Source of the DNA: Herbidospora sakaeratensis
GTDB lineage: Bacteria; Actinomycetota; Actinomycetes; Streptosporangiales; Streptosporangiaceae
Direction of reading: 5' to 3'
Assembly: GCF_001570525.1 (NCBI RefSeq)
Contig: NZ_BBXC01000015.1
Location: 1 to 64,000, forward strand
Length of the DNA stretch: 64,000 bases
Shown here one piece after another: positions 33,688 through 51,273 of this stretch. A program made the translations under genes and the position numbers. Within the stretch, counting starts at the first letter, position 1, and each line of letters starts with the position of its first letter. A model generated the notes under the pieces. The model ran no database searches. It saw only the letters and a program-made list of their open reading frames with translations, and was not told the DNA's origin.

Positions 33688-36651
33688 TCAGTCTTCGTAG
33701 AAGACCCGTTCCACCACGGCCCGCGCCCGCCGGGTGGTGCGGCGGTAGTCGTCGATGAAGTCCTCCGAGCCGTCGGGCGGGTAGCCCAGGGCCCGCGACA
33801 CCAGGGCGCGTTCGCGTACCACGCCCGGGATCGAGTCGGCCGACCGGCCCTTGACCAGCATGATCGCGTCGCGGACGCGCGAGGCGAAGCGCCAGGCGTC
33901 GGCGAGAGTCTGCTCGTCGGAGGCGTCCAGCAGGCCCTCGCCGACCGCCGAACGCAGGGTGTCGAGCGTGCGGGTGGTGCGCAGGGCGGGCACGGTCCCG
34001 GCGTGGCGGAGCTGGAGGAGCTGGGCCACCCACTCCACGTCGGACAGGCCGCCCCGGCCCAGTTTCGTGTGGAGCGTCGGGTCGGCGCCGCGCGGGAGGC
34101 GTTCGGCCTCCATGCGGGCCTTGAGCTTGCGGATCTGCAGCAGGGCGTCGGGGGCCAGGCCCTCCTCGCGGTAACGCAGCGGGTCGATCAGAGCCGTGAA
34201 CTCGGTGCCGAGGTCGAAGTCGCCGGCGCAGAAGCGGGCCCGCAAAAGCGCCTGGGCCTCCCACGGCGACGACCAGCGTTCGTAGTAGGCGCGGTAGGAG
34301 GAGATGGTGCGGACCAGCGGGCCCTGGCGGCCTTCGGGACGCAGGCCCGCGTCGACGGCCAGCGGCGGTTCGGGCGTCGGGAGGATCAGCAGGCGGCGCA
34401 GTTCCTCGGCGACCGCGTGGGCCGCGTCGGTGGCGTCCTTCTCCTCCGCGCCCGGGAGCGGGGCGTGCACGAACATGACGTCGGCGTCGCTGCTGTACGA
34501 GCACTCGAAGCCCCCCAGCCGCCCCATCGCGATGACCGCCATGCGGGTCGGGAACTCGCCCCGGCGCTCCTCGGTCACCTTGCGGACGGCCGCGTTGAGC
34601 GCGCCCTCGATCGTGGCGTCGTTGAGCTCCGACAACGCCTGGCCGACGCCCTCGATGTCGAGGTGGCCGCCGAGGTCGGCGCAGGCCACCCGGAACAACT
34701 CCCGGCGGCGCAGCGCGCGGACCGCCGCCACCGACGACTCGGCGTCCTGGCCGTAGCGGGCCACGGCCGCGTTGGCCTCGGCGTGCAGGGCCTCGACGGG
34801 ACGTACGGCCAGGTCGGCGGGCGAGCCGAGCATGGCCACCGCGTCGGGGGCGTGCTGGAGCAGCGTCGTGACGTAGCGGGAGGTGCCGAGCAGCCGGGCC
34901 AGGCGTTCGGCCACGGCCGTCTCGTCGCGGAGCAGCCGCAGGTACCACGGGGTGGCGCCGAGCTTGTCGCTGATCTGGCGGAAGCCGAGCAGGCCCGCGT
35001 CGGGGTCGGGGGCGTCGGCGAACCAGCCGAGCATGACCGGCAGCAGCGTGCGCTGGATCGCCGCGCGCCGGGAGACGCCGCTGGTCAGCGCGCTGATGTG
35101 GCGCATCGCCCCGGACGGGTCGGCGTAGCCGAGCGCCTCCAGCCGCACGTGGGCGGCCGAGGTCGACAGGCGGGCCTCCTCCGACGGCAGCCGCGCGGCG
35201 GCCTGCAGCAGCGGCCGGTAGAAGAGCTTCTCGTGCAGCCGCCGCACTTCGAGCGCGTGGCGCTTCCAGGTGGTGGTGAACTCGCCGACCGGGTCGGTCA
35301 CCATGCCCAAGCCGCGGCCGATCCGCCGCAGGTCGGCGCTGTCGGACGGGACGACGTGGGTGCGCCGCAGCCGGTGGAGCTGGAGCAGGTGCTCGACGTG
35401 GCGCAGGAACGAGTAGGCCTCGGCCAGCGCCTTGGCGTCGTCGCGGCCGACGTAGCCGCCGCGCGACAGGGCGGCCAGCGCGGGCAGGGTGGCCTTGCGG
35501 CGCAGCAGCGGGTCGGTGCGGCCGTGCACGAGCTGGAGCAGCTGCACCGCGAACTCGATGTCGCGCAGCCCGCCCGGCCCGAGCTTGATCTGCCGCTCGG
35601 CCTCCGAGACCCGTACGTGGGCCTCGACCCGCCGCCGCATGGCCTGCACGTCCTCGACGAAGTTCTCGCGGGCGGCGGCCTCCCACACCAGGTCGTTGAC
35701 GGACTCGACGTACTCGGCGCCGAGTTCCAGGTCGCCGGCGACCGGCCGCGCCTTGAGCAGGGCCTGGAACTCCCAGGTCTTGGCCCAGCGGCGGTAGTAG
35801 GTGAGGTGGCTGTCGAGGGTGCGGACCAGCGGGCCCATCTTGCCCTCGGGGCGCAGCCCGGCGTCGACCTCCCAGAGCGACCCCTCGGGGGTGCTGGTCG
35901 TGCAGGCCCGCATCATGGCCTGGGCCAGCTTGGTGGCCGCCTTCAGGGCGAGCGCCTCGTCGACGCCCTCCTTCGGCTCGGCCACGAAGACGACGTCGAC
36001 GTCGGAGATGTAGTTGAGCTCGCGGGCGCCGCACTTGCCCATGCCGATGACGGCCAGGCGGGCCTGTTCCCAGCCGGGCGTCTCGGCGCGGGCGATGGCA
36101 AGGGCGGCGTCGAGGGCGGCGGCGGCCAGGTCGGACAACTCGGCGGCGATCTCGGCCAGGGTCAGCACGCCGGTGACGTCGAGCCCGGCCAGGTGGAGCA
36201 GGCGGCCCCGGTAGGAGGCGCGCAGGGCGTCGAGGGCGTGCTCGCCCGAGGCGACCGGCTCGGGCTCCGACGGGTCGGCGCCGACGGCGAACAGCAGTTC
36301 CTCGCGGTGGCTGAGCGGCTCTTCGGGGTCGGGGCCGGTGACGTGTTCGGGGTGGCGGACCACGTGGTCGCCGAGGGCGGCGCTGAGGCCGAGCACCCGC
36401 AACAGGCGGCGGCGCAGGCCGGGGTCGGCGCGCAGCGCGCCCAGCACGCTCGGGTCGCGTTCGACCAGGCGGCTCAACGAGATCAGGGCCAGGTCGGGGT
36501 CGGCGGCGGAGACCAGATCGTCGAGGAGGTCGAAGTCGGCGACGGCCTCGGGCCCGAGCGCGTCCAGCAGCCGTTCGGCCCTGGCGCCATCGGCGAATCC
36601 GAGGCGGGCCAGGCGCCCGGCGGTGGTCTGCATCCGGAACGCGGCGTTCAC
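33688..36651 (-). CDS. glnE: Bifunctional glutamine synthetase adenylyltransferase/adenylyl-removing enzyme
   Basis: 987 aa from GTG 36651, chosen for its GGAGGAAGG ribosome site; a TTG at 36693 preceded by GGAAG would add 14 residues. Two homologous nucleotidyltransferase domains, each with the GxG...DxD active site: GMGKCGARELNYISDVDVVF around residue 225 and AMGRLGGFECSYSSDADVMF around residue 715. GlnE attaches AMP to, and removes it from, the regulatory tyrosine of GlnA (Y402 in this window's glnA), tuning ammonium assimilation. Its place between glnA and glnA2 is the usual actinobacterial order. Confidence 0.95.
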   Translation of the reverse strand: MNAAFRMQTTAGRLARLGFADGARAERLLDALGPEAVADFDLLDDLVSAADPDLALISLSRLVERDPSVLGALRADPGLRRRLLRVLGLSAALGDHVVRHPEHVTGPDPEEPLSHREELLFAVGADPSEPEPVASGEHALDALRASYRGRLLHLAGLDVTGVLTLAEIAAELSDLAAAALDAALAIARAETPGWEQARLAVIGMGKCGARELNYISDVDVVFVAEPKEGVDEALALKAATKLAQAMMRACTTSTPEGSLWEVDAGLRPEGKMGPLVRTLDSHLTYYRRWAKTWEFQALLKARPVAGDLELGAEYVESVNDLVWEAAARENFVEDVQAMRRRVEAHVRVSEAERQIKLGPGGLRDIEFAVQLLQLVHGRTDPLLRRKATLPALAALSRGGYVGRDDAKALAEAYSFLRHVEHLLQLHRLRRTHVVPSDSADLRRIGRGLGMVTDPVGEFTTTWKRHALEVRRLHEKLFYRPLLQAAARLPSEEARLSTSAAHVRLEALGYADPSGAMRHISALTSGVSRRAAIQRTLLPVMLGWFADAPDPDAGLLGFRQISDKLGATPWYLRLLRDETAVAERLARLLGTSRYVTTLLQHAPDAVAMLGSPADLAVRPVEALHAEANAAVARYGQDAESSVAAVRALRRRELFRVACADLGGHLDIEGVGQALSELNDATIEGALNAAVRKVTEERRGEFPTRMAVIAMGRLGGFECSYSSDADVMFVHAPLPGAEEKDATDAAHAVAEELRRLLILPTPEPPLAVDAGLRPEGRQGPLVRTISSYRAYYERWSSPWEAQALLRARFCAGDFDLGTEFTALIDPLRYREEGLAPDALLQIRKLKARMEAERLPRGADPTLHTKLGRGGLSDVEWVAQLLQLRHAGTVPALRTTRTLDTLRSAVGEGLLDASDEQTLADAWRFASRVRDAIMLVKGRSADSIPGVVRERALVSRALGYPPDGSEDFIDDYRRTTRRARAVVERVFYED

Positions 36652-38508: not shown

Positions 38509-38985
38509 ATGCTTCCTGAGCACGACCTGACCTCCGATCTCGCGGCGACCCTGGCGCGGCTCACGGAGGAGGTCGGGCGGGAGCACGAACGCGCGGCCCA
38601 CCGCGAGCAGATCATCGACCGGCTGCACGCCGAGAACCAGGAACTGCGCCACGGCCTGCTCCAGGAGGCGCTCGCCCCGGTGCGCAACGGCCTCTACCGG
38701 CTCCACGACACGGTCACCCGCGAGGCCGCCCGGCAGGAGCCGGGCCATTCGCGCGCCCTGCTGGAGGCCATCGCCGAGGAGGTCGCCGAGGTGCTGGCCC
38801 GGACCGGCGCCGACCGGATCGAGGTGGCCGAGGGCGACGCCTACGACCCCGCGCTCCACCGGCCGGCCGGCACCGCCGAGGGCCCGCCGAACACGGTCGT
38901 GGGCGTGGTCAGCGAGGGGTTCCGCTCCGGGGAACGGGTGCTGCGCAAGGCGGGGGTCGTCATAGGAAAAGAGGAGATCGACTGA
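38509..38985 (+). CDS. GrpE-like nucleotide exchange factor
   Basis: 158 aa. N-terminal coiled coil (LARLTEEVGREHERAAHREQIIDRLHAENQEL) followed by a small beta domain ending VVGVVSEGFRSGERVLRKAGVVIG, the GrpE signature. Acts as ADP-release factor for Hsp70; its partner is evidently the next gene, whose ATG overlaps this stop by one base. It is a second, dedicated copy type rather than the housekeeping grpE, which normally sits with dnaK and dnaJ; no J-protein gene is present here. Confidence 0.82.
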   Translation: MLPEHDLTSDLAATLARLTEEVGREHERAAHREQIIDRLHAENQELRHGLLQEALAPVRNGLYRLHDTVTREAARQEPGHSRALLEAIAEEVAEVLARTGADRIEVAEGDAYDPALHRPAGTAEGPPNTVVGVVSEGFRSGERVLRKAGVVIGKEEID

Positions 38986-40568
38986 TGGCCGTGCACGGCA
39001 TCGACCTGGGCACCACCTATTCCTGCATCGCGAGCGTCGACGACGTCAGCCGGCCGACGGTCCACCGCAACGCCGAGGACGCCGACACGACCCCCTCGGT
39101 GGTGTTCTTCGAGACGCCCGAGAACGTCGTGGTCGGCCAGACCGCCAAGGACAGCGCGGTCCTGGAACCCGACCTGGTGGTCAGCCGGATCAAGCGCGAC
39201 ATGGGGCTCGACGTCACCCGGACCATGCACGGGCGGCCGTACACGCCCGAGGAGATCTCGGCCTTCGTGCTGCGCAAGCTGGCCGCCGACGCCGAGATGG
39301 CCACCGGCTCCCGCGTCGAGGACGTCGTGATCACCGTCCCGGCCTACTTCGGCGCGGCCGAGCGCGACGCGACCCGCAAGGCGGGGCAGGTCGCCGGGCT
39401 CAACGTCATCGACATCATCTCCGAGCCGATCGCCGCCGCGATCACCTACGGCGTGCTCAACCCGGGCGAAGACTGCCGGATCCTCGTGTACGACCTGGGC
39501 GGCGGCACCTTCGACACCACGGTCATCACGCTGACCGGCGGCGACATCGAGGTCGTCTGCACCGACGGCGACCACGAGCTCGGCGGCGCCGACTGGGACG
39601 ACCGCCTGGTCGAGCTGCTGGCCGAACGCTTCCGGCTGGAGCACCCCGACGTCACCGACCCGCTCGACGACAAGCAGACCGAGCAGCAGTTACGCCGCGA
39701 CGCCGAGGAGCTGAAGAAGTCGCTCACCTCGCGCACCAGGCACACCGTCCGGGTGATGCACGACGGCCGGGTGGCCAAGGCCGAGGTGTCGCGAGAGGAC
39801 TTCGAGCGGCTCACCCGCGACCTGCTCGACCGCACGGTCGAGATCACCCGCCGGACCCTGTCGACCGCCCGGTCGAAGGGGGTCGAGTCGTTCGACCACC
39901 TGGTGCTGGTGGGCGGCTCGTCGAAGATGCCGGCCGTGGCCGAGACGCTGGCCAAGGAGCTCGGCGTGCAGCCCCGCCTGCAGGACCCCGACCTCGCGGT
40001 GGCCAAGGGCGCGGCCCTCTACGCCTTCGAGGAGACGTACCGGAGACTGCTGGCGGGCGGAGCCCGCGAACAGGCCGAGGAGATGGCCGCCCGCGCGGGC
40101 CTCAGCTCGGGCGAGCGGCAGCGCATCGCCGGGCGCACGATCAAGACGGTCGCCTCGCGGGCCTTCGGCATCAAGGCCGTCTCGGTGAACACCCGCCGCG
40201 AGTACGTCGCCCATCTCGTCCAGGCCAACGACCCGCTGCCCGCCGACGTGACCGAGGGCTTCGCGACCCTCGACGACTACCAGACCCGGGTCGCCATCGA
40301 GGTGATGGAGCAGGCCGGGGCCGAGGCGTCGGAGGCGGTCGAGGACAACAACCGCATCGCCGAGGGCGACCTGGCCATCCCGCCGGGGAAACCGGCCGGG
40401 TTCCCGATCGAGGTGACGTTCACCCTCGACACCTCCGGGCTGCTCCACGTGACCGCGCGCGAGCACGAGACCGGCCAGCAGCTCGACCTGAACGTGCAGA
40501 TCGGCGGCATGACGGAGGAGGACGTCGCCGAGTCGCGGGCGAGCCTGTCGCACCTGACGGTCAGCTGA
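38985..40568 (+). CDS. Hsp70 (DnaK-like) chaperone lacking the C-terminal lid
   Basis: 527 aa against ~610-640 for DnaK. The ATPase domain is complete: GIDLGTTYSCIA (phosphate 1), VYDLGGGTFDTTV (phosphate 2) and LVGGSSKMPAV (adenosine). The beta substrate-binding domain (about residues 390-510) is present, but the protein ends at the point where the helical lid would begin. A TTA leucine codon lies at residue 236. With the upstream GrpE-like gene it forms a private chaperone pair for the GTPase cassette downstream; whether it folds, senses or regulates the GTPases is unknown. Confidence 0.88.
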   Translation: MAVHGIDLGTTYSCIASVDDVSRPTVHRNAEDADTTPSVVFFETPENVVVGQTAKDSAVLEPDLVVSRIKRDMGLDVTRTMHGRPYTPEEISAFVLRKLAADAEMATGSRVEDVVITVPAYFGAAERDATRKAGQVAGLNVIDIISEPIAAAITYGVLNPGEDCRILVYDLGGGTFDTTVITLTGGDIEVVCTDGDHELGGADWDDRLVELLAERFRLEHPDVTDPLDDKQTEQQLRRDAEELKKSLTSRTRHTVRVMHDGRVAKAEVSREDFERLTRDLLDRTVEITRRTLSTARSKGVESFDHLVLVGGSSKMPAVAETLAKELGVQPRLQDPDLAVAKGAALYAFEETYRRLLAGGAREQAEEMAARAGLSSGERQRIAGRTIKTVASRAFGIKAVSVNTRREYVAHLVQANDPLPADVTEGFATLDDYQTRVAIEVMEQAGAEASEAVEDNNRIAEGDLAIPPGKPAGFPIEVTFTLDTSGLLHVTAREHETGQQLDLNVQIGGMTEEDVAESRASLSHLTVS

Positions 40569-40575
40569 CCCCGCG

Positions 40576-43035
40576 ATGCCCTTCGACGAGGCCCGCTACG
40601 TGCGGGAGGTGCTCGATCCGGCCCGCGCGGCGGGCGCCCCGCCCGACGACCTGCTGGTCCGGTACGCCCTGGGCCACGACCTGGCCGACGTCGGCGACAC
40701 CGTCAAGGCCGTGCGGCAGTGCTGGCGGCGGCAGCGCGGCCAGCTGAAGTTCCGGCGGCTCGTCGACCGGCTCGAAGCCGACCACGCCCGGCTGGCCCCG
40801 ATCTTCGACGCGGCGGCGGGCGGCGACCTCGGGCCGCTGCGGGGCGCGCTGGCCGAGGCCGGGGAACGCGACCGCGCCCGGCGCGAGGAGGCGCGGCGGC
40901 GGCTCGACGACGCGGCCGGGCGGTTGCGGATGGTCACCCCCGAGGTGGCCGACGGCATCGCCCGCTCGACCGGCTGCGACCTGCGGCCGCTGGCGCGGGA
41001 GCTGGGCGTCGTCGTCCAGGAGCCCGAGGCGCTGGCGACCGTCCCGCCCTACGCCGCCTACGACCGGGTCCGCGACGCGCTCGACACGCTGGGGGTGCGC
41101 CACCTGGCCGCCTTCGTGCTCGGCGACGCCGGGCCCTATCGGGTGCTGCGGCCTGTGAGCCTGCCGCTCGCGGCGGTCGAGGCCGACTGGCGGCGGCGGA
41201 CCCGGGGCCCGTGGACGACGGCGGCCGACACGCTGCTGACCGCGCTGAAGTCCGACCCGGCGGCGCTGATCCGCCACGACCTGGTGACCCGGTTGCGCGA
41301 ACGGGTGCGCGAGCACCCCTACGACGACACCCTGCTCCGCTACGCCGTCGACGACCTGGGGCTCGAATCGGGCGAGGCGCGGCGGCTGGTGTTCGCGGTC
41401 CGGCAGGAGACCGGCGTCGCGGGCGGGCCGTCGGCGCGGCTGCGGGAGCTGGCCGACGCCGGGGAGATCCACGCCGCCGCCGACCTGGCCGCGACCCTGA
41501 CCGACCTCGACGGGCCCGCCGCCGAGCTGGCCGCCGAGATCCGCGCCCGGCTGGCCGCCGCCGAGGCGCTCCGCGACCGGGCGCTGGCCAGCCGCGACTC
41601 CGACGAGGCGTGGCTGGCGCTGGCCGACGCGCTCCGCCGGGTGCCCGACCTCCCGGGGGCGGCCGACCTCCAGAAGCGGCTGGCCCCGCTGCCCGCCGAG
41701 GACGTGACGGCCACGGCCGACGACGCGTCGGTGGTCGTGACGTGGCGGCCGTCGGGGTCGAAGGCGGGCGAAATATCGTACGAAATCCTGAGAAATGGCC
41801 TTCCCCTCGACGGCGGCGAGCCCTTCCGCGTGACCGCCCCCCCCCCGCCGATCGACGAACCGGTCGTCTACGCCGTGGTGGCCCGCCGGGGTTCGGCCGC
41901 CGCCCGCGCCGCCGCCGCGCCGCCCGTCACGGTGCGGCCCGAGGCCGCCGACGTGCGGGTGCGGGCCGGCGACGGCCTGGTCACCGGCGGCTGGACGCGG
42001 CCCGCCGGGGCGGCCGGGGTCGTGGTGACCCGCGACGGCACGCCGATCGAGATCGACGGCGACGGCTTCGCCGACCGGAGGGTGCGCAACGGCACCGGCT
42101 ACGTCTACCTGGTCAAAGCGGTCTATTCGGGTGGCGTGACGACGCCGGGCGTCCGGGCCCGCGCCACCCCGCACGCCCGGCCCGTGCCGGTCGGGGAGTT
42201 CACCGTCGAACCCGCGCCCGACGGGCAGGTGCTGCTGCGCTGCGCGCCGCCGCCCGCCGGTCACGTGGAGTTCCGGCTGCTGGAGACCGCTCCCCCGTGG
42301 CCCTACGGCACGACGGTCTCGCTCGCCGAGGCCCGCGCCACCGGCCGCGCCCTGGCTGTGTTGCCCGCGCCCGACGGACACCTGGTCAAGGCGGCGTCGG
42401 GGGTGCTGCTGGCGCTCACCGTGGCGGGCGACCTGGCCACGATCGGCGGCACCCGGGAGCACGTCAACCTGACCCCGCCGCGCTCGCTCACCGCCGAGCG
42501 CCTCGGCCGGGCCGTGCACGTCGGGCTCGACTGGCCGGCCGACGTGCCCGAGGTCGAGGTGGTGGTGAACGGGACGGCGACGCTGGTCAGCGCGGCGTCC
42601 TACCGGGCGCAGGGCGGGATCCGGCTGGACGTCCCCGAAGACGCGGCCGTCACCGTCGAGGTGGTGCCGACGGCGGTGGTGGGCGGGGTGCGGCTGCGCG
42701 GGCCGGGCCTGTCGCGGTCACTGGAGGCGGTCACGCCCGTGCGGTACGACCTCTCCCGGACGGGGCCGTTCTGGCGGCGGCGGCTGGTCGTCGAGGTCGA
42801 CGCCGAGCGGCCGGTCACGCTGGCCCGGCTGGTGCTGGTGCTGCGGCCGGGACGGGTGGAGCCGCTGTCGGAGGACCAGGGCGCCGTGCTGGCCGAGTGG
42901 ACCGGGGTGCGCACGCCCGCCCGGTTCGAGACGGCCGTGCCCCGGCGGGCGAAGCCGTACTGGCTGAAGTGCTTCGCTGGAGACGGCGTCGAGCTGATCG
43001 GCCCGCCGGTGCGGCGGCTCAAGGTGGGCTCATGA
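40576..43035 (+). CDS. 819-aa protein with helical N-terminus and Fn3-like repeats
   Basis: Not assigned to a family. Residues 1-~375 are Arg/Ala/Asp-rich helices, including a tetratricopeptide-like flavour (LWRRTRGPWTTAADTLLTALKSDP; DSDEAWLALADALRRVPDLPGAADLQ). From ~380 on there are several fibronectin-III-like beta domains (VTATADDASVVVTWRPS, ISYEILRNG, VVTRDGTPIEIDGDGFADR, GTGYVYLVKAVYSGGV). Cytoplasmic by sequence. Follows Hsp70 by 7 bp and overlaps the GTPase gene by 4 bp (ATGA), so clearly operonic. Could be an adaptor linking chaperone and GTPases, inferred only from position. Confidence 0.55.
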   Translation: MPFDEARYVREVLDPARAAGAPPDDLLVRYALGHDLADVGDTVKAVRQCWRRQRGQLKFRRLVDRLEADHARLAPIFDAAAGGDLGPLRGALAEAGERDRARREEARRRLDDAAGRLRMVTPEVADGIARSTGCDLRPLARELGVVVQEPEALATVPPYAAYDRVRDALDTLGVRHLAAFVLGDAGPYRVLRPVSLPLAAVEADWRRRTRGPWTTAADTLLTALKSDPAALIRHDLVTRLRERVREHPYDDTLLRYAVDDLGLESGEARRLVFAVRQETGVAGGPSARLRELADAGEIHAAADLAATLTDLDGPAAELAAEIRARLAAAEALRDRALASRDSDEAWLALADALRRVPDLPGAADLQKRLAPLPAEDVTATADDASVVVTWRPSGSKAGEISYEILRNGLPLDGGEPFRVTAPPPPIDEPVVYAVVARRGSAAARAAAAPPVTVRPEAADVRVRAGDGLVTGGWTRPAGAAGVVVTRDGTPIEIDGDGFADRRVRNGTGYVYLVKAVYSGGVTTPGVRARATPHARPVPVGEFTVEPAPDGQVLLRCAPPPAGHVEFRLLETAPPWPYGTTVSLAEARATGRALAVLPAPDGHLVKAASGVLLALTVAGDLATIGGTREHVNLTPPRSLTAERLGRAVHVGLDWPADVPEVEVVVNGTATLVSAASYRAQGGIRLDVPEDAAVTVEVVPTAVVGGVRLRGPGLSRSLEAVTPVRYDLSRTGPFWRRRLVVEVDAERPVTLARLVLVLRPGRVEPLSEDQGAVLAEWTGVRTPARFETAVPRRAKPYWLKCFAGDGVELIGPPVRRLKVGS

Positions 43036-44126
43036 TCACCTGTCCCTACTGCTTCGCCCGGGTGGCCGACGACCAGATCGCGTTCCGGTGCGCCGGCGGT
43101 TGCGACCCGGTGGCCGACGAGCTCCTCGGGAGGTTGCGGGGTGGCACTCCCCCGTCGTTGCCGCCGGCGTTCCAGGTGCGGCGGCCGGGCCGCCGGGCCG
43201 ACTGCCCCGCGTGCGGACGCGACACCGGGCGGCGGGTCTGCCCCGAGTGCCACAGCGGGCTGGCCGCCGAGTACTGCGCCAACCCCGGCCGGATCGTCGC
43301 CCTCGTCGGGGCGAAGGGCTCGGGCAAGAGCACCTACATCGCGGTGCTGCTGCACGAGCTGATGAACCGGGTGGGCGCGGAGCTCGACGCGTCGCTGGTG
43401 CCGTGCGACGACCGGACGATCGAACGTTACCGCCGCGACTTCGCCCGCCCCCTGTTCGGGGAGCACCGGCTGCTGCGGGCCACCCAGTCGGCGGTGACCG
43501 ACACCCTGCGCGACCCCCTCGTCTACCTGCTCACCCGGACCGTGAAGGGCCGGTTCCGCAGCCGCCGGGCCGCCCTGACGCTGGTGCTGTTCGACACGGC
43601 GGGCGAGGACCTGCGCAGCCGCGAGGTGACCGAACGGCACCTGCGCTACCTGCGGGCCTCCGACGCCGTGGTGTTCCTGGTCGACCCCGACTCGCTGCGG
43701 AAGCCGTCGGACGACCCGGACAGCGACCCGGTGAACGTGATCGCCCGGGTGACGGAGCTGCTGCGTACCGCAGATGGGCCATTGAAGATCCCCGTGGCGG
43801 TGGCGCTCAGCAAGGCCGACGCCCTGCGGCGGGAGACCGGCTCGGCGCTGCACCGGTCGCGCGTCCCGTCGGGGGCCTTCGACCTCGACGACCACGAGGG
43901 CGTGCACGAGCAGGTCCGGGCGCTGCTGGAGGGCTGGCAGGCCGGGGCGCTCGACCGCTACCTGCGGCAGAACTACGCCGACTTCGCGTTCTTCGCGTTG
44001 TCGTCGCTCGGCGAGGCGCCCGGGGAGGCCGAGGTCGGCCCCGGCGGCATCCGCCCCTATCGGGTGGAGGATCCGCTGTTGTGGCTCCTGCACCGGTTCA
44101 AGATGCTCGACGGCGTGCGGAGGTAG
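43032..44126 (+). CDS. Zinc-ribbon GTPase (double-GTPase cassette, DO-GTPase type)
   Basis: 364 aa. Two N-terminal zinc-binding clusters (CPYC near residue 4 with CAGGC, then CPACG...CPEC around residues 58-72). P-loop GAKGSGKST at G93-T101, G3 motif D188-T-A-G191, and a G4-like ALSKAD around residue 262. C-terminal helices end with LLWLLHRFKML. It resembles the first GTPase of two-GTPase/GAP1 cassettes described by comparative genomics as conflict (defence-like) systems. Overlaps the Fn3-like gene; the GAP1-like gene follows 3 bp later. Confidence 0.75.
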   Translation: MITCPYCFARVADDQIAFRCAGGCDPVADELLGRLRGGTPPSLPPAFQVRRPGRRADCPACGRDTGRRVCPECHSGLAAEYCANPGRIVALVGAKGSGKSTYIAVLLHELMNRVGAELDASLVPCDDRTIERYRRDFARPLFGEHRLLRATQSAVTDTLRDPLVYLLTRTVKGRFRSRRAALTLVLFDTAGEDLRSREVTERHLRYLRASDAVVFLVDPDSLRKPSDDPDSDPVNVIARVTELLRTADGPLKIPVAVALSKADALRRETGSALHRSRVPSGAFDLDDHEGVHEQVRALLEGWQAGALDRYLRQNYADFAFFALSSLGEAPGEAEVGPGGIRPYRVEDPLLWLLHRFKMLDGVRR

Positions 44127-44129
44127 GTC

Positions 44130-46307
44130 ATGGCCTGGCAGCTCCACTACACGTCGGCCGAATCGGGGCCCTCGGGCCGTTCGGGGTTCCAGGTGACCGC
44201 CGAGACCCCCGGCCTGCCGCCCGTGCTGCGGGAGCGCAGCGCGCCCTACCTGGTCTACCAGCCCCCGCCCGACGCGCCGCTCGCCCCGACGCCCGCCGAG
44301 ATCGCCGCGCTGCCGGTGTCGATGGCCTACGGGGGCGGGATGCTCGCCCGGTGCGTCTACCTGGGCCAGGACTATTCGGGACGGTACGGGAACTTCCTGG
44401 CGCACGCCGTGCTGCCGGGCGAGGGGGAACTGGTCGGGCTGCGGCCGATCGAGTTCTGGGAGGCCTCATGGTGGGCCTCCGCGCCTTCCGGCTCCTTCGA
44501 ACTGCCCGTGCTGGAGCCGTCCGCCGGGCCATACCTCGACCCCGAGGGGCTGGTGGCGTGGCTGGCCGCGCTCGGCCCCGACGCCTACGTGCGGCTCGGC
44601 GGGCTGCTGGAGGCGGTGCGGCTGTTCCTCGCCCGGGGGCACGGGCGGCTGGTGCTGGTCAGCGCCGACGTGACCGAGGTCGTGCGGTGGATCGCGGTCG
44701 TCTCCTTCTCGTTGCCGTGGGCGTCGGCGATCCGGTTGTCGTTCGTGACGTACACGGCCGACCCGGCCTCCTCGGGCCAGGTCATCGCCGGGACCACCCC
44801 CGACGTGTGGATCCCGCCCGACGTCGACGCGACCGTCGTGCGGCTCGACGAACCGGCCGCGCCGGTGCGGACCGGGCGGTTCGCCGGGACGGTCGCCGGG
44901 TTCTGGCGGCGCGGCGACCTCGACGGGCTCGACGCGCTCGGCGAACTGGGCGACGACCCCGAGACGGCGGCGGCGCTGCTGGCGCTCTGCCGGGGCGACC
45001 ACACGGTCTCCCCCGAGGAGCAGACCGCCGTCGCCCGGCTCTCCGCGGGCGGCCTGCCCGACTGGGCGTGGCAGCGGCTGGCGTCCCAGGCCGGGCTGCT
45101 GACCTACGACCTGGCCGCCGCGGTGGCCGTGCACGCCGCCGAGGGCGCGGCCCGGTGCGTGTCGCTCGCCCTGCGCGACCCGGCACTGCCCCTTCCGGTA
45201 CGGCTCCCGCCCCCCGGCCACGCCTCCGCGCTCGGCGCCGAGGCCACCACCGCGTTGCGGCAGGCCGTCACCCCCGCCCAGGTGGCCGGGATCGTACGGG
45301 TGGCCGACGCCTGCGACCTGCCCGTCGACGCGGCCGAGGTGGAGTCGGCGGCGGCGCGCGCCGTGCCGGGCAACCAGGAGGAGGCCGCCGCCGAACTGGC
45401 CCGCGTGCCCGCGACCTGGCGCGAGGCGATGACCGCCGGGTACGTGGCCGGGCTGGAGGCCGCACCCGGCGAGGTGGGCGCCACCCTGTGCGGCCTGCTC
45501 GCCGGAGCCCGCCGCGACTGGCGGCGCGCCCCCCGCACGGGCGTGGCGGTGCTGCGCTGGCAGACCCTCCACGGCGGCCGCGACCGCGTCGAGACGACGG
45601 CCGAACTGATGGACCGCGCCTTCGACGGCTTCCGCGAACAGGCCCTCCCGTCGTTGTGGACCACCCAGCCGACCCCCGGCGAGATCGGCCGCCTGGTCGA
45701 CCTGCTCGGCCCCCGCATGGACGCCAGCCCGACCCTGGGCGAACTCCCCGGCCGCGCGTTCGTCAAGGCGGGCCTGGCCAGCGGCGAGGCCCTGGCCCTG
45801 GCCGAACGCGTGCGCGACGGCCTGCCCGGCTTCCCCGCCGACGACGCCGAGGCGACCCTGATCGCCGCCCGCCTGCCCTCGGCCCCCACCCCTGTGGAGG
45901 CGGCGAGCGCGATCGACCGCCTGACCGACCTCACCCGCGAGGGCAACGCCGAACTCGCCGAACTCACCCGGGCGACGGCCGCCAAGGTGCTGGCCACCCG
46001 CGACCCCCGCTTCCGCTCGACGGTCGCCAAGGCCGTCACCGACGCGACCCGCCGCTGGCTGATCCCCGAATGGCTCAAACCCCGCCGCAACCGCGACCAG
46101 CAGATGGCCCTGCTGGAGATCGCGATCAGGATGCGCGTCGCCGGGGTGATCGAACCCCGCCTGGACGCCTGGGCCCGCTCGGAGGTCAACAACTGGGGCC
46201 GCTTCGGCTCGATGGAGGCCCGCTTCAAACAGGACGCCGAACTGGCCGCCGGCCTGAAGGAACTGGCCGGCCAGCGGAGACGGCTGTTCGGGCGCGGAGA
46301 ACGGTAG
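44130..46307 (+). CDS. GAP1-like GTPase-associated protein
   Basis: 725 aa. The N-terminal ~150 residues (AWQLHYTSAESGPSGRSGFQ; LARCVYLGQDYSGRYGNFLAHAV; IEFWEASWW) match my memory of the GAP1-N2 type domain, followed by a helical middle domain (LVLVSADVTEVVRWIAVVSFSLPW...) and an Arg/Ala-rich helical C-terminus like GAP1-M/GAP1-C. These proteins are found almost only with paired GTPases in bacteria, and their biochemical role is undetermined. It lies directly between the two GTPase genes, with its stop abutting the next start. Confidence 0.72.
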   Translation: MAWQLHYTSAESGPSGRSGFQVTAETPGLPPVLRERSAPYLVYQPPPDAPLAPTPAEIAALPVSMAYGGGMLARCVYLGQDYSGRYGNFLAHAVLPGEGELVGLRPIEFWEASWWASAPSGSFELPVLEPSAGPYLDPEGLVAWLAALGPDAYVRLGGLLEAVRLFLARGHGRLVLVSADVTEVVRWIAVVSFSLPWASAIRLSFVTYTADPASSGQVIAGTTPDVWIPPDVDATVVRLDEPAAPVRTGRFAGTVAGFWRRGDLDGLDALGELGDDPETAAALLALCRGDHTVSPEEQTAVARLSAGGLPDWAWQRLASQAGLLTYDLAAAVAVHAAEGAARCVSLALRDPALPLPVRLPPPGHASALGAEATTALRQAVTPAQVAGIVRVADACDLPVDAAEVESAAARAVPGNQEEAAAELARVPATWREAMTAGYVAGLEAAPGEVGATLCGLLAGARRDWRRAPRTGVAVLRWQTLHGGRDRVETTAELMDRAFDGFREQALPSLWTTQPTPGEIGRLVDLLGPRMDASPTLGELPGRAFVKAGLASGEALALAERVRDGLPGFPADDAEATLIAARLPSAPTPVEAASAIDRLTDLTREGNAELAELTRATAAKVLATRDPRFRSTVAKAVTDATRRWLIPEWLKPRRNRDQQMALLEIAIRMRVAGVIEPRLDAWARSEVNNWGRFGSMEARFKQDAELAAGLKELAGQRRRLFGRGER

Positions 46308-47930
46308 ATGTGGTGGCTCGTCCTGGCCGGCTTCTGGCTCGTCGCCATGTGGGCGGCCTTCGTGTTCGTCTTCCCGGTGCTCTTCGCGGCGACCGTGGTG
46401 GTGGCGGTGCTGGGGGCGCTGGCGGCGTACTTCACGACGGCGGCCCACGTCCTGCTCCCCGACCAGGGGGTGCGCGGCCCGCCTGAGGGAGCCGAACCCG
46501 CCTACCGCCACTACCTGGTCTCGCAGGTCTGGCACGACTGGTGGGCGGTCCTGGCCGGCGCGGTGCCCGTCGTCGACGGGCGGGTCCGGCGGGTCGTCCG
46601 CGCGCTGACCAAACTGCTGATGTCGGACGAGCGCCGCTACGTGCTCTTCCCCATCTGGCTCGCCGTGATGGCCGGCCTGATCGCGGCGCTGCTGCCGCTG
46701 AGCGTGGTGGCCCTGCTGGTCACGGCGGCCTACCTGGTGACGGTGGTGGCCGGCCTGCTGGCCTGGCTGGCCTTCGTGGGCGTGCTGCGCGGGGTCGAGC
46801 AGTCGGTGATGCTGCTGCGGCGCATCCTGCAGGCGTGCCCCTATCCCGGCTGCTACGCCCGCATCGACCGGCCGATCTACGCCTGCCCGTCGTGCGGGGC
46901 CCAGCACCGGGCCCTGCGCCCCGACCGGAACGGCGCGTTCCGGCACGTCTGCCGGTGCGGCGCCCGGCTGCCCACCACGATCCTGCTCGGCCGCCACCGG
47001 GTGCGGGCGCTGTGCCCCCACTGCGGGCGGACGCTGCCCGGGAAGATCGGCAAGGTCCGCGTCGAGCCCGTTCCGCTGGTGGGCGGCCCCGACGCGGGCA
47101 AGACGACCTTCCTCGCGGTGGCCGTCGAGGCGCTGCGCGAGACCTCCGGGGCTCGGTTCGTGGATGAGGGGGACGCGCAGACCTTCCTCCGCCTGCGCCA
47201 CCAGCTGGCGGCCGGGACGATGACCAAGACGGGCACCCAGCTGCCGAAGGCGGTCATCCTCGACGTGTCGGCCCGGATCCTCTACCTGTTCGACCCTTCC
47301 GGGGAGCACTACACGGGGGCCAGCCGGGTGGAGGCCATGGGATACCTCGCGCACGGCGAGGCGATGGTGCTGCTGATCGACCCGTTCGCGCTGCCGGCCG
47401 TCCAGGACAGCCTCGTTCCCGCCGATCGGGAGCTGCTGGCGGCGGGGGGTGTGGTGCCCTCACGGGAGGACCCGGCCGACACGGTCCACCGGGTCCGCAA
47501 CGAACTCTCCTCCCGGGCGGACGGGGGGCGTCAACGGCGGATCGCGGTGGTGGTGACCAAGGGGGACCTCCTGGAGAGGACCACCACCGGGCAGGGAGCC
47601 GGCGACGACCCGCAGGCGTGGCTGACGACGATGGGGATGGGAAACCTGGTCCGGGACCTGGCGAACCGGGGGTCGGAGGTGCGCTACACGACGTCGGGCC
47701 TGCCGCCGAAGACGGACGAGATCGCGGGACTGGTGACGTGGCTGACCGGGCTGAACGGCGAGCGGAAGGCCGAACGGGCGGCCGGGGAGCCGTGGCGGCC
47801 GCATGCCAGGGCCAAGGGGCGTCCGCCGCTGAGCTACACGGTGGTGCGGCGGCTGCTGTTCACGGCGAGCGCGCTGCTGAGCGCGGGCGCGGTGGCCGCC
47901 GCGATCCTCTGGTTCACCACCAGAACATGA
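46308..47930 (+). CDS. Membrane-anchored zinc-ribbon GTPase (second GTPase of the cassette)
   Basis: 540 aa. Two transmembrane helices at residues ~1-45, two more at ~118-165, then two zinc ribbons (CPYPGCYAR...CPSCGAQ and CRCGAR...CPHCGRT, residues ~180-250), a GTPase domain with P-loop G259-GPDAGKTT267 and a G4-like VVVTKGDL around residue 422, and a final transmembrane helix near residues 512-535. The membrane anchoring implies the cassette acts at the cell envelope. It starts with no gap after the GAP1-like gene. Confidence 0.78.
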   Translation: MWWLVLAGFWLVAMWAAFVFVFPVLFAATVVVAVLGALAAYFTTAAHVLLPDQGVRGPPEGAEPAYRHYLVSQVWHDWWAVLAGAVPVVDGRVRRVVRALTKLLMSDERRYVLFPIWLAVMAGLIAALLPLSVVALLVTAAYLVTVVAGLLAWLAFVGVLRGVEQSVMLLRRILQACPYPGCYARIDRPIYACPSCGAQHRALRPDRNGAFRHVCRCGARLPTTILLGRHRVRALCPHCGRTLPGKIGKVRVEPVPLVGGPDAGKTTFLAVAVEALRETSGARFVDEGDAQTFLRLRHQLAAGTMTKTGTQLPKAVILDVSARILYLFDPSGEHYTGASRVEAMGYLAHGEAMVLLIDPFALPAVQDSLVPADRELLAAGGVVPSREDPADTVHRVRNELSSRADGGRQRRIAVVVTKGDLLERTTTGQGAGDDPQAWLTTMGMGNLVRDLANRGSEVRYTTSGLPPKTDEIAGLVTWLTGLNGERKAERAAGEPWRPHARAKGRPPLSYTVVRRLLFTASALLSAGAVAAAILWFTTRT

Positions 47931-47934
47931 TCGA

Positions 47935-48813
47935 ATGGCGGGGATGTCCCCTTCCCTCGCCCACGCCTCCCTGCTCGGCCTCGCCCTCGGCGACGCCTTC
48001 GGCTCCCAGTTCTTCGTCCCCGCCAACCGCCCCCACCTGTCCGCCCGCACGCTCCCCCCGTCCCCCTGGCAGTGGACGGACGACACCGAGATGGCCTGCT
48101 CGGTCCACGACGTCCTGACCAGGAGAGGCGCCGTCGACCAGGACGACCTCGCGCACGCCTTCGCCGCCCGCCACGACTTCGACCGCGGCTACGGCCCCGC
48201 CACCAACCGGCTGCTCCGTCTGGTCAGGGAGGGCGGCGACTGGCGCGAGCTCGCCACCGGCCTGTTCGGCGGGACGGGTTCGTGGGGCAACGGCGCCGCG
48301 ATGCGGGTCGCCCCGCTCGGCGCCTGGTTCGCCGGCGACCCGGCCAGGGCCGCCGCGGAGGCGGCGTTGTCGGCCGAGGTCACCCACGCCCACCCGGAGG
48401 CGGTCGCGGGCGCGGTCGCCGTGGCCGTCGCGGCGGCGCTCGACCCGTCGCTCCCGCCGGGCCGGTTCCTCGACCAGGTCTTGGCGCACGTCCCGCCGGG
48501 CCTGGTCCGCGACGGCCTCACCGAAGCCCGGCAGTTGCTCACGATCGGCGACCCGGGCCTGGCCGCCCGCATGCTCGGCAACGGACGCCGGGTGACCGCG
48601 CACGACACGGTCCCGTTCACGTTGTGGGTCGCGGCCCGCGAACGCGGCGACTTCGAGAAGGCCATGTGGACGACGGCCTCGGCGGGCGGCGACGTCGACA
48701 CGACGTGCGCGATCGTCGGCGGCATCGTCGCGGCCGCGCCCCAGGTCACCCTGCCGGCCGAGTGGACGAGCCGCCGAGAACCGCTGCCCGCCTGGTCACG
48801 GTCGCCTGGCTAG
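47935..48813 (+). CDS. ADP-ribosylglycohydrolase (ARH/DraG family)
   Basis: 292 aa. Metal-site motifs WTDDTEM near residue 44, GNGAAMR near residue 119 and GGDVDTTCAIVGGI near residue 250 define the ADP-ribosyl-acceptor hydrolase family, which removes ADP-ribose from proteins, nucleic acids or metabolites. The start (47935, or ATG 47944) is 4-13 bp after the membrane GTPase stop, so it is part of the same transcription unit. Possible role: reversing ADP-ribosylation of a component of the GTPase/Hsp70 cassette (inference). No nitrogenase genes are present, arguing against a classical DraG role. Confidence 0.85.
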   Translation: MAGMSPSLAHASLLGLALGDAFGSQFFVPANRPHLSARTLPPSPWQWTDDTEMACSVHDVLTRRGAVDQDDLAHAFAARHDFDRGYGPATNRLLRLVREGGDWRELATGLFGGTGSWGNGAAMRVAPLGAWFAGDPARAAAEAALSAEVTHAHPEAVAGAVAVAVAAALDPSLPPGRFLDQVLAHVPPGLVRDGLTEARQLLTIGDPGLAARMLGNGRRVTAHDTVPFTLWVAARERGDFEKAMWTTASAGGDVDTTCAIVGGIVAAAPQVTLPAEWTSRREPLPAWSRSPG

Positions 48814-48822: not shown

Positions 48823-49858
48823 ATGGAGTACGACTTAGTGGCCGAATCGTGCGAACGACAAGACTTCGATCAGGCTCGCGCCACAGTGGACGCCCTGATG
48901 GAGAAGCACCCCCCGTCCTCCCCTCCGCGCACGTCCACATTCTCCAGGGCGAACCCCGCGCCGCCCGCGAGGCGATCGACCGGGCGCTGATCGTCTCCCC
49001 GGAGCTGCGGGCCGACCACCTCGCCCTGGCCTCCCGGATGTTCCGCCTCCTCGGCGACGTCACCCAGGCCATCTCCCACGGACGGCGCGCGGTCGGCCTC
49101 GACCCCGACGACCCGATGGCCAACCAGGCGCTCGCGAAGGCCTACGCCGCGGACCCCGACCGCGATCTGCTGCTCGAAGCGGAGCACCACGCCGCGAAGG
49201 CGGCCGAGCCGGTGCCCGACGAGCCGGTGGAGAAGCGTCGCCCCTGGACGGCGGACGGCCGTCGTCCTCACGTTGATCTACATTCCCGTCACGAAGTGGC
49301 TGGGCGGCCTGATCGAGGACCTGCTGGGAATCGACCGGTCCCCGGACCGGTCTCCCGTGGCGGGGATCGTGATCATCGTGGCGGTGACGGCGGCCGGGGT
49401 CTGGGCCTTCCGGGCGGTCCGGATCCGGCGCGGCGGCGACAGAGTCGGCGCCGCCGTCCAGCGCTGGCGGGCCGTGTCCCGCGAGCTCCAGCTCACACTC
49501 CCCGGCCGGTTCACCGGCTCGGCGAAGGGGCCGGCGGCCTGGCTCTGCCTCCTGCCCTTCGCCGCCACGATGTGGCTCGGCTTCCCGGTGCTGGACGAAG
49601 GGCTGCCGCCCTCCCCGGGGGGCGGCGGCCGCCGCCGGGGGCGTCGTCGCCGCTCTGGGCCTGGTCCTCTGGCTGGTCGTGCGCTGGTGGCTCGGCCCCG
49701 GGCAGACCTGGCGGTTGCTCACGGCCGGCTGGACGATACGCGTCTACCTGCCGATCGCCGCCGGCCTGATGCTGACCGCCATCGTGATGGCGGCCGCCCG
49801 GGTGACGAGCGAACACGCCTGGCTCGTCGTCACCCGGCGTCAGAGGACCGGCAGGTAG
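48823..49858 (+). pseudogene. TPR-plus-membrane protein gene with three frameshifts
   Basis: Reading across three frames gives one sensible protein (~345 aa): a TPR-like start (ESCERQDFDQARATVDALMEKHP), then HVHILQGEPRAAREAIDRAL and two further TPR-like helix pairs, then transmembrane segments (VVLTLIYIPVTKWL; GIVIIVAVTAAGVWAF; AALGLVLWLVVRWW; AAGLMLTAIVMAAA) ending VTRRQRTGR. Frame changes fall near a C6 run at 48909-48914, near 49235-49260 and at a C4G6 run at 49613-49622. Either a decaying gene or sequencing errors. Resembles TPR proteins of streptomycete genomes in general layout only. The tail overlaps the convergent glnA2 gene by 19 bp. Confidence 0.65.
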
Positions 49859-51201
49859 CGTCCCAGCTCGAACTCCGTCACCTGACGCCGGTACTCGCGC
49901 CACTCCGACCGCTTGTTGCGCAGGAAGTAGTCGAACACGTGCTCCCCGAGCGTCTCGGCCGCCAGCTCCGAGTGCTCCATCGCCGTGATCGCCTCGTCGA
50001 GGGACTGCGGCAGGGGGTGGATGCCCAGCGCCCGCCGCTCACCCGAGGTCAGCGCCCACACGTCGTCTTCGGCCCCGGCCGGGATGTCGTATCCCTCTTC
50101 GATGCCCTTCAGCCCGGCCGCGAGGATCATCGCGTACGCCAGGTAGGGGTTGCACGCCGAGTCGAGCGAGCGGAACTCGATACGGGTCGAGCCGCCCTTG
50201 TGCGGCTTGTACATCGGCACCCGCACCAGGGCCGACCGGTTGTTGTGGCCCCAGCAGATGTAGGACGGCGCCTCGCCGCCGGCCCCCGCGATGGCCTCGG
50301 TGTCGCCCCACAGGCGCTTGTAGGAGTTGACCCACTGGTTGCACACGGCCGTGATCTCGGCGGCGTGCTTCAGCAGGCCGCCGATGAACGAGCGGCCGAC
50401 CTTGGAGAGCTGGTAGTCGGAGCCGGGCTCGTAGAAGGCGTTGCGGTCGCCCTCGAACAGGGACATGTGGGTGTGCATGCCCGAGCCGGGGTATTCGGTG
50501 AACGGCTTGGGCATGAACGAGGCCCAGACGCCCTGTTCGAGCGCGACCTCCTTCATGACCAGCCGGAACGTCATGATGTTGTCGGCGGTCGACAACGCGT
50601 CGGCGTAGCGGAGGTCGATCTCCTGCTGGCCGGGGGCGCCCTCGTGGTGGCTGAACTCCACGGAGATGCCCATGGCCTCCAGCATCATGATCGCGTTGCG
50701 GCGGAAGTCGTGGCCGGCGCTGTGGGGCGTGTGGTCGAAGTAGCCGCCGTCGTCGATCGGCTCGGGCCTGACGCCCTTCTCGGGGCGGTTCCTGAGCAGG
50801 AAGAACTCGACCTCGGGGTGGGTGTAGAAGGTGAAGCCCATGTCGGCGGCCCGGGCCAGGGTGCGCTTGAGCACCCAGCGGGGGTCGGCGTGCGACGGGG
50901 AGCCGTCGGGCATCAGGATGTCGCAGAACATCCGGGCCGCGCCGGGGGTCTCGCTGCGCCACGGGAGGATCTGGAAGGTCGACGGGTCGGGCTTGGCGAG
51001 CATGTCCGACTCGTAGACGCGGGAGAACCCCTCGATGGCCGAGCCGTCGAAGCCGATGCCCTCGGCGAACGCGCCTTCGAGCTCGGCCGGCGCGATGGCC
51101 ACGGACTTCAGGAATCCGAGCACGTCCGTGAACCAGAGCCGGATGAACCGGATGTCGCGCTCTTCTAGCGTGCGGAGGACGAATTCCTGCTGGCGGTCCA
51201 A
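49840..51201 (-). CDS. glnA2: Glutamine-synthetase-like enzyme, GlnA2 type
   Basis: 453 aa, the length of Streptomyces GlnA2, starting at a TTG codon (51201) preceded by GAGGTAG; the longer frame to 51264 runs into the control region. GS-fold motifs: FDGSAIEGF near residue 53, EVEFFLL, GMHTHMSL, NNRSALVRVP. It lacks the GlnA adenylylation tyrosine loop. In Streptomyces, GlnA2 has been characterised as a gamma-glutamylpolyamine synthetase rather than a true glutamine synthetase, and this protein probably shares that role. Preceded by a perfect GlnR-like half-box. Confidence 0.88.
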   Translation of the reverse strand: MDRQQEFVLRTLEERDIRFIRLWFTDVLGFLKSVAIAPAELEGAFAEGIGFDGSAIEGFSRVYESDMLAKPDPSTFQILPWRSETPGAARMFCDILMPDGSPSHADPRWVLKRTLARAADMGFTFYTHPEVEFFLLRNRPEKGVRPEPIDDGGYFDHTPHSAGHDFRRNAIMMLEAMGISVEFSHHEGAPGQQEIDLRYADALSTADNIMTFRLVMKEVALEQGVWASFMPKPFTEYPGSGMHTHMSLFEGDRNAFYEPGSDYQLSKVGRSFIGGLLKHAAEITAVCNQWVNSYKRLWGDTEAIAGAGGEAPSYICWGHNNRSALVRVPMYKPHKGGSTRIEFRSLDSACNPYLAYAMILAAGLKGIEEGYDIPAGAEDDVWALTSGERRALGIHPLPQSLDEAITAMEHSELAAETLGEHVFDYFLRNKRSEWREYRRQVTEFELGRYLPVL

Positions 51202-51257
51202 GGCGACTACCTCACGAAAGTTCCAGGTCTGGACACCTACCAGTGTGCCCCTTGTGT

Positions 51258-51273
51258 GTTTCACATACGTTAC
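51258..51273 (-). promoter_or_regulatory. GlnR-like site upstream of glnA2
   Basis: On the minus strand GTAAC-n6-GAAAC is a perfect gTnAc-n6-GaAAc GlnR half-box (57-72 bp upstream of the TTG start). Only one a/b pair is present; the second pair found upstream of glnA in this window is not seen here. Confidence 0.65.

What the first reader, a model, noticed from the sequence alone, without database searches (positions are those of the whole stretch)
38509..48813. Seven-gene GrpE-Hsp70-GTPase-GAP1-ARH operon: candidate conflict or stress system
Seven genes are packed with gaps of 7 bp or less or overlaps: GrpE-like, lidless Hsp70, an 819-aa Fn3-like protein, zinc-ribbon GTPase, GAP1-like protein, membrane GTPase and an ADP-ribosylglycohydrolase. 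From memory, Aravind-group comparative genomics (Kaur et al. 2020) described two-GTPase/GAP1 modules as predicted NTP-dependent conflict systems without experiment. The dedicated chaperone pair and the ADP-ribose eraser in the same unit suggest a switchable membrane-associated machine controlled by GTP, chaperone state and ADP-ribosylation. The exact combination may be undescribed.
Basis: partly seen in the sequence, partly recalled or inferred. Interest (0 to 1): 0.85.

Follow-up and report, generated by a model that had tools for sequence, protein, structure and literature searches.

The report
Chaperone-GTPase operon with swappable tail genes
Six of the seven genes form an already described chaperone-and-GTPase module that these soil bacteria pass down stably, while the seventh sits at the operon's end in a spot where two related species carry a recognised anti-virus gene pair instead, which hints at what the module may do.

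Summary
The seven genes are real, intact and tightly packed. Six of them (GrpE, lidless Hsp70, Fn3-array protein, zinc-ribbon GTPase, GAP1, membrane GTPase) are a conserved core: 59 of 79 named loci carry all six in order. This is the HSP70/GrpE theme of the GAP1-N2/DO-GTPase systems predicted by Kaur et al. 2020: known, and untested.

The ARH is not part of the core. It is a common stand-alone ARH3-like enzyme, linked to the core only in Herbidospora: intact in 4 of 7 genomes, a decayed remnant in 2, absent in 1.

New here is a short slot between the membrane GTPase and glnA whose content turns over within that genus: ARH; ARH plus a TIR protein; ARH plus a TPR-membrane gene; or a Septu-type pair (PtuA 1e-162 or better; PtuB 3.6e-85) placed exactly between the GTPase stop and the ARH start. 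Outside the order, 2 of 5 loci with the Hsp70-type core have a CHAT-domain gene close downstream. The core follows genera on a tree and is under purifying selection, unlike the "mobile" neighbourhoods described in print.

My reading: a constant GTP/Hsp70-switched membrane machine with exchangeable conflict effectors. The effector link is inference; no experiment was found.

The parts
38509..38985 (+). GrpE-like nucleotide exchange factor, 158 aa (core gene 1)
   Evidence: Pfam GrpE E 6.4e-12; conserved first gene of the core
38985..40568 (+). Lidless Hsp70, 527 aa (core gene 2)
   Evidence: Pfam HSP70 1.7e-106; DnaK alignment without the alpha lid; ATPase motifs at or near 100% in 67 sequences, 41 of them exactly 527 aa
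40576..43035 (+). Helical N-terminal half plus Fn3-type array, 819 aa (core gene 3)
   Evidence: AlphaFold pLDDT 89.0; Foldseek to fibronectin Fn3 repeats E 4.6e-11; no Pfam hit
43032..44126 (+). Zinc-ribbon DO-GTPase, 364 aa (core gene 4)
   Evidence: Pfam DO-GTPase2 2.1e-11; paired Cys and P-loop residues kept in at least 95% of 73 sequences
44130..46307 (+). GAP1 (GAP1-N2 + GAP1-M + long alpha-solenoid), 725 aa (core gene 5)
   Evidence: Pfam 4.2e-36 and 4.4e-20; AlphaFold pLDDT 88.9
46308..47930 (+). Membrane DO-GTPase with zinc ribbons, 540 aa (core gene 6, last gene of the conserved core)
   Evidence: Pfam DO-GTPase2 1.2e-21; hydrophobic stretches 1-50, 110-164, 515-538; motifs conserved
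47935..48813 (+). ARH3-like ADP-ribosylglycohydrolase, 292 aa; occupant of the accessory slot, not a core gene
   Evidence: Pfam 7.3e-54; best PDB relatives are ARH3 (2.5e-17); genus-restricted linkage
48823..49831 (+). [not shown]
   Evidence: first ORF 48823-48990 is 55 aa; tblastn pieces at 48886-49831
33688..36651 (-). glnE, left chromosomal anchor
   Evidence: Pfam GlnE 4e-105
49840..51264 (-). glnA, right chromosomal anchor that closes the accessory slot
   Evidence: Pfam Gln-synt_C 5.7e-123; downstream of the core in 16 of 79 named loci

Best explanation
Genes 1-6 are a constant, vertically inherited machine: a zinc-ribbon GTPase and a membrane GTPase that switch with GTP, a GAP1 scaffold, an Fn3-array adaptor with a helical head, and a private lidless Hsp70 with its own GrpE. 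The likeliest working is that infection or envelope damage is sensed at the membrane through the Fn3/GAP1 parts, the two GTPases change state, and the Hsp70/GrpE cycle sets the threshold by assembling or dismantling the complex. The output is delivered partly by exchangeable genes placed at the end of the operon, directly after the membrane GTPase: in Herbidospora an ARH3-like hydrolase, a TIR protein or a Septu pair, and in some other actinobacteria a CHAT-domain protein. Shown here: the core, its conservation, its family membership, intact nucleotide-binding motifs, vertical inheritance, and the turnover of the slot. Inferred: sensing, complex formation, GTPase and chaperone activity, co-transcription of slot and core, and the effector role of the slot genes.
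For: Core and families. Gene order in 59 of 79 named loci. Invariant or nearly invariant ATPase and GTPase motifs. Core tree follows genera: 12 label changes for 12 groups, least possible 11, shuffled mean 32.9, 0 of 200 as low. Purifying selection in Herbidospora, median dN/dS 0.087-0.248 for core genes. Slot turnover in 7 Herbidospora genomes with fixed flanks. Septu pair exactly between the GTPase stop and the ARH start, 13 bp after the GTPase, with the ARH decayed behind it in both carriers; PADLOC PtuA 1.2e-162 and 4.4e-167, PtuB 3.6e-85. TIR_2 1.4e-9 and 1.6e-10. CHAT 1.3e-55 and 5.7e-54 downstream of the core in a second family. Published precedent for constant core plus variable effectors (PMC7159879).
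Against: In 72 non-Herbidospora named loci only 1 has a same-strand gene within 30 bp of the membrane GTPase (2 of the 72 end at a contig end), so a coupled slot is not a general feature. Septu is known as a stand-alone system and may only use this site. Septu carriers number 2 of 7, are not sisters on the core tree, and may go back to one insertion. PtuB of H. yilanensis reads in two frames. PADLOC finds nothing for 6 of the 7 window proteins and only a weak P-loop match (mad8, 1.6e-4) for the zinc-ribbon GTPase. ARH is lost in three of seven genomes, so it is dispensable. No expression or phage data.
Confidence: 0.5

Rival explanations
1. The six-gene core is a housekeeping machine for membrane or envelope stress (protein folding or complex assembly at the membrane), not a conflict system; the end of the operon is merely a place where foreign genes can land without damage.
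For: Core inherited with the genera and fixed beside glnA in 16 of 79 named loci across Herbidospora, Acrocarpospora, Planobispora and Sphaerisporangium; dN/dS low; Fn3 protein, which Kaur et al. proposed as the variable sensor, is not more variable than GAP1 in my alignments (mean column identity 50% against 39%, different row sets); DO-GTPases are spoken of elsewhere as linked to membrane stress (passage of PMC11237479).
Against: Patchy presence: GAP1-N2 in 86 of 200 genomes of the order. Core genes other than Hsp70 evolve faster than glnE (0.144-0.248 against 0.076). Slot contents in two families are conflict-type genes.
Confidence: 0.3
2. The slot genes are independent defence genes that accumulated beside a conserved operon (a small defence island) and have no functional link with it.
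For: Septu pairs work alone (general knowledge; not tested here). ARH orthologues stand alone in many genomes without shared neighbours. In most other genera no gene is coupled to the end of the core.
Against: Insertion lies precisely between two stop and start codons on the same strand, 13 bp after the GTPase, no integrase or transposase gene was seen among the slot genes that I annotated, and the flanks outside the slot stay constant.
Confidence: 0.35
3. One reading: a seven-gene machine in which the ARH is a dedicated ADP-ribose eraser working with the chaperone pair, for instance to undo ADP-ribosylation by phage enzymes.
For: ARH is 4 bp from the membrane GTPase and under purifying selection (dN/dS 0.216, n = 4 species); it keeps the TDDT, GNG and GGDxDT stretches that align with ARH3; its presence in four species and its remnants in two suggest it was in the slot early in the genus. 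PMC9503650 section 3.8 (read in full) proposes ARH-type enzymes with chaperones as a counter to viral ADP-ribosylation.
Against: Absent next to the core in every non-Herbidospora locus examined by strong match; a nomadic single gene elsewhere, in 77 of 200 genomes; replaced or lost in three of seven Herbidospora genomes.
Confidence: 0.08

Closest known systems
GAP1-N2-type DO-GTPase systems, HSP70/GrpE theme (Kaur et al. 2020, eLife, PMC7159879)
   Same: GAP1-N2 and GAP1-M, zinc-ribbon GTPase plus membrane GTPase, FNIII-repeat protein, HSP70 and GrpE.
   Different: The core here follows genera, where the paper speaks of mobile gene neighbourhoods (passage); the N-terminal half of the Fn3 protein gave no DnaJ or TPR hit; ARH, Septu and TIR at the end of the operon are not in the section read.
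Septu (PtuA/PtuB) anti-phage system
   Same: The slot occupants of H. galbida and H. yilanensis hit PtuA and, for galbida, PtuB over nearly the whole model. Related mREase_IV models also match, less well (2e-111 and 1.1e-58).
   Different: Not in the window's genome at E 1e-10. Here the pair sits as the tail of the chaperone-GTPase operon; I found no paper in five listings and searches that says so.
ARH3-type ADP-ribosyl hydrolases
   Same: Best PDB relatives are ARH3 enzymes (2.5e-17); metal-site stretches align.
   Different: Only residues 46-188 align well, with a weak second piece; substrate is untested. The nearest bacterial curated models match far below their cut-offs (DraG 42.5 of 337 bits, Tri1 26 of 490).
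ARG-centric systems with chaperones (PMC9503650, section 3.8)
   Same: ARH-type enzyme near chaperone genes.
   Different: Those have Nudix or WYL regulators and phosphatases; none is in this operon, and the chaperones named there are vWA, SseB and TY-type, not Hsp70.

Membership tests
GAP1-N2 DO-GTPase system, HSP70 theme | GAP1 protein with GAP1-N2 and GAP1-M | tested here: met
   Pfam 4.2e-36 and 4.4e-20, both over the cut-off. GAP1-C gave no Pfam hit; the model shows an alpha-solenoid there.
GAP1-N2 DO-GTPase system, HSP70 theme | One or two DO-GTPases, with N-terminal zinc ribbons | tested here: met
   DO-GTPase2 77.9 and 44.4 bits, cut-off 27; paired cysteines at least 95% conserved.
[quoted passage not shown]
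   Hydropathy gives two long stretches (1-50, 110-164), each long enough for two helices, and one at 515-538; no topology predictor was used.
GAP1-N2 DO-GTPase system, HSP70 theme | HSP70 and GrpE genes in the neighbourhood | tested here: met
GAP1-N2 DO-GTPase system, HSP70 theme | FNIII-repeat protein, typically fused to DnaJ or TPR | tested here: inconclusive
   Fn3 array met by fold; no DnaJ or TPR hit in Pfam at E 1; residues 1-370 are helical in the model.
GAP1-N2 DO-GTPase system, HSP70 theme | Mobile gene neighbourhood | tested here: not met
   Membrane-GTPase tree follows genera (quick method with long-branch warnings); glnA anchor in 16 of 79 loci. This is a general remark of the paper, not a defining part.
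GAP1-N2 DO-GTPase system, HSP70 theme | Function in biological conflict | not testable with these tools
   Prediction only, in the paper and here.
Septu (slot of H. galbida and H. yilanensis, not the window) | PtuA ATPase with PtuB HNH protein next to it | tested here: met
   PADLOC PtuA 4.4e-167 and PtuB 3.6e-85 in galbida; PtuA 1.2e-162 in yilanensis, whose PtuB reads in two frames and was not scanned. HNH Pfam 0.0019, below its cut-off.
ADP-ribosylglycohydrolase (ARH3-like) | Two-metal site residues (TDD near the start, DxDT near the end) | tested here: met
   Aligned with ARH3; that these are the metal ligands is recalled.
ADP-ribosylglycohydrolase (ARH3-like) | Hydrolysis of ADP-ribose conjugates | not testable with these tools
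   No assay.

The most novel reading that the evidence does not exclude
The six-gene core is a fixed chassis that puts whole, otherwise autonomous defence modules under GTP and Hsp70 control: an ARH-TIR pair acting on NAD and ADP-ribose, a Septu pair, or a CHAT protease is docked behind the membrane GTPase, and the lidless Hsp70 with GrpE keeps the docked module silent until the GTPases report infection. Effector exchange then happens by swapping operon tails while the sensing and switching part stays the same.
Probability: 0.25. Interest if true: 0.8.

Novelty: new variant of a known kind. Interest (0 to 1): 0.5.

Why it matters
The GAP1-N2/DO-GTPase systems are common in actinobacteria and have been called conflict systems from gene neighbourhoods alone. 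Herbidospora offers a natural experiment: the same core at the same chromosomal place with different tail genes, one of them a pair already recognised as anti-phage. That makes the prediction directly testable in close relatives and asks a new question, whether a chaperone-GTPase switch controls known defence modules.

Tried and rejected
ARH as a core gene: rejected. A conserved partner of ARH elsewhere: 16 regions fetched; my gene caller found the ARH in 10 of them and missed it in 6, and among the 10 no neighbour recurred beyond pairs of related genomes. TIR as a common partner of ARH: TIR relatives only in 2 of 200 genomes, both Herbidospora (only the best 10 candidates per genome were scored). 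A known fold or relative for GAP1: no PDB match at E 0.001 or below (best 1.3e-3, a designed protein), none by sequence at E 1; the membrane GTPase profile found none at E 0.01. Promoters and terminators: no promoter-like site, three terminator-like sites against 2.0 expected, none at the ARH junction; uninformative. An eLife-type variable Fn3 sensor: not supported by column identities. One or two Septu insertions: not decided; identical junctions and a slight excess of yilanensis-galbida identity over yilanensis-solisilvae in the last 123 bp of the GTPase gene (0.86 against 0.82) fit transfer of one cassette but do not prove it. A first family-wide search with the Fn3 protein failed and was not repeated.

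Limits: genes in relatives come from a home-made GC-position caller, which misses genes and shortens starts (it shortened PtuA of galbida and ARH of mongoliensis; tblastn gave the full extents). Named loci were chosen by a membrane-GTPase match, best 80 of 102. In the 20 of 79 loci without all six calls, 6 lack only GrpE by my caller, 1 lacks the membrane GTPase by my caller, and the other 13 lack two or more core genes; I did not check each of these for a contig end.
Full report
OBSERVATION. Pfam confirms GrpE, HSP70, GAP1-N2 with GAP1-M, DO-GTPase2 in both GTPases, and ADP_ribosyl_GH. In one search I had given the zinc-ribbon GTPase in a wrong frame; one search holds the right one. The 819-aa protein has no Pfam or NCBIfam hit, but its model (36 sequences, pLDDT 89.0, pTM 0.39) has a helical half (about 1-370) and a row of beta domains that match fibronectin type III repeats (E 4.6e-11). 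NCBIfam gives no own family for GAP1 or the Fn3 protein. PADLOC gives nothing for six of the seven and a weak P-loop match (mad8, E 1.6e-4) for the zinc-ribbon GTPase.

ANATOMY. The Hsp70 has a full nucleotide-binding domain and beta substrate-binding domain and no alpha lid. In 67 relatives the phosphate-binding stretches, Lys70 and Glu147 are at 97-100%, 41 of 67 are exactly 527 aa, and the segment between the domains carries a conserved TVAS-x-AFGI stretch; that DnaK has a leucine-rich linker at this place is recalled. Both GTPases keep P-loop (GxxxxGKST / GGPDAGKTT), DTAGE or DPSGE, and KxD motifs in at least 95% of 73 and 79 sequences, together with paired zinc-ribbon cysteines. The membrane GTPase has hydrophobic stretches at 1-50, 110-164 and 515-538. 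GAP1 models as a small beta domain, an alpha/beta domain and a long alpha-solenoid (pLDDT 88.9, 34 sequences), with no PDB match at E 0.001 or below.

THE CONSERVED UNIT IS SIX GENES. GAP1-N2 occurs in 86 of 200 genomes of the order. I fetched 90 regions around such hits and 79 named loci by a membrane-GTPase profile. All six core genes in order on one strand were called in 59 of the 79; the other 20 lack one or more calls, some at contig ends. The ARH is there as a strong match (over 500 bits) in 3 of the 90 regions and in the window, and in 3 of 79 named loci, all Herbidospora. Weak ARH-family matches of 23-36 bits lie upstream of the core in several Actinomadura-like regions and are not orthologues of the window gene.

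INHERITANCE. A tree of 79 membrane GTPases needs 12 changes of genus for 12 groups (least possible 11; shuffled mean 32.9; 0 of 200 as low; 6 rows without a genus left out), by a quick method with warnings about long branches. glnA lies within 439-7149 bp downstream in 16 of 79 named loci, in Herbidospora, Acrocarpospora, Planobispora and Sphaerisporangium. Within Herbidospora median dN/dS is 0.087 (Hsp70), 0.144 (GrpE), 0.173 (membrane GTPase), 0.176 (zinc-ribbon GTPase), 0.230 (GAP1), 0.248 (Fn3) and 0.216 (ARH, four species), against 0.076 (glnE), 0.015 (glnA), 0.202 (alpha/beta hydrolase) and 0.173 (terpene synthase); n is 6 or 7 apart from ARH. So all are constrained, the core less so than glnE apart from Hsp70. 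Kaur et al. speak of mobile neighbourhoods (passage); here the core behaves as vertical.

HOW GENERAL. Among 72 non-Herbidospora loci with a called membrane GTPase, 1 has a same-strand gene within 30 bp behind it (two of the 72 end at a contig end). So a coupled slot is a Herbidospora feature within the order. In a class-wide search, 31 of 394 genomes had a membrane-GTPase match at E 1e-40. I fetched 14 of the loci outside the order: five of them have Hsp70, Fn3, both GTPases and GAP1 together (L232, L236, L237, L240, L241), and 2 of these 5 (L232, L237) have a 1051-aa CHAT-domain protein (1.3e-55, 5.7e-54) as second gene behind the GTPase, with gaps of 54 and 82 bp and of 66 and 1 bp. One locus of another family without Hsp70 (L230) has vWA and PP2C genes there, as in Kaur's third theme.

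ARH. It aligns best with ARH3 in the PDB (2.5e-17). Orthologues stand in 77 of 200 genomes and 23 of 45 genera of the order (12 candidates scored per genome), at up to 76% identity outside Herbidospora, and for example 2.2 Mb from the core in G083. All seven Herbidospora genomes also have another ARH-family gene elsewhere. So the ARH is a roaming single gene that entered this operon within or before Herbidospora.

MECHANISM. What is shown is the architecture and its evolution. The inferred working: membrane GTPase and zinc-ribbon GTPase form the switch, GAP1 the scaffold, the Fn3 protein the adaptor or sensor, Hsp70 with GrpE the threshold, and the tail genes part of the output. The presence of Septu, TIR and CHAT genes at the tail in two families supports a conflict role; the absence of any coupled tail gene in most loci speaks against a simple one-to-one effector scheme. 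The two strongest rivals are a housekeeping membrane machine and chance neighbours at an operon end.

LITERATURE. Seven searches of the paper library. For GAP1-N2 or DO-GTPase only PMC7159879 was on the subject; I read its section on GAP1-N2 systems in full and passages. PMC11237479 was seen in passages. PMC9503650 section 3.8 was read in full and other parts as passages. Other papers were seen as listings only. Subscription papers and supplements were not searched.

VERDICT. The core is a known kind; the ARH is accessory; the exchange of tail genes with a Septu pair in the same slot is, as far as these searches go, a new and testable variant.

Noticed in passing
[not shown]
   Followed up: partly
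G000:C7:1033070-1033453 (L039): The same genome has a second, divergent set of GrpE, Hsp70, Fn3, GTPase and GAP1 genes (GAP1 match 41% over the N-terminal part); no membrane GTPase was recognised beside it.
   Followed up: partly
L232 4502-8381 and L237 11078-14480: In another family of the class, a CHAT-domain gene follows the core; in L232 the gene between them has a weak match to NADase_transloc (1e-5, just under its cut-off).
   Followed up: partly
L095, L096, L097, L103, L104, L105, L108 and others: Distant ARH-family genes lie a few kb upstream of the core in several Actinomadura-like regions, with other genes on both strands between.
   Followed up: no
L125 11731-13071: In H. mongoliensis a ricin-lectin/pectate-lyase gene has come between the membrane GTPase and the ARH.
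   Followed up: no
L171 (Streptosporangium saharense): Two same-strand genes (406 and 659 aa) overlap the start of the Hsp70 gene where GrpE would stand; seen.
   Followed up: no
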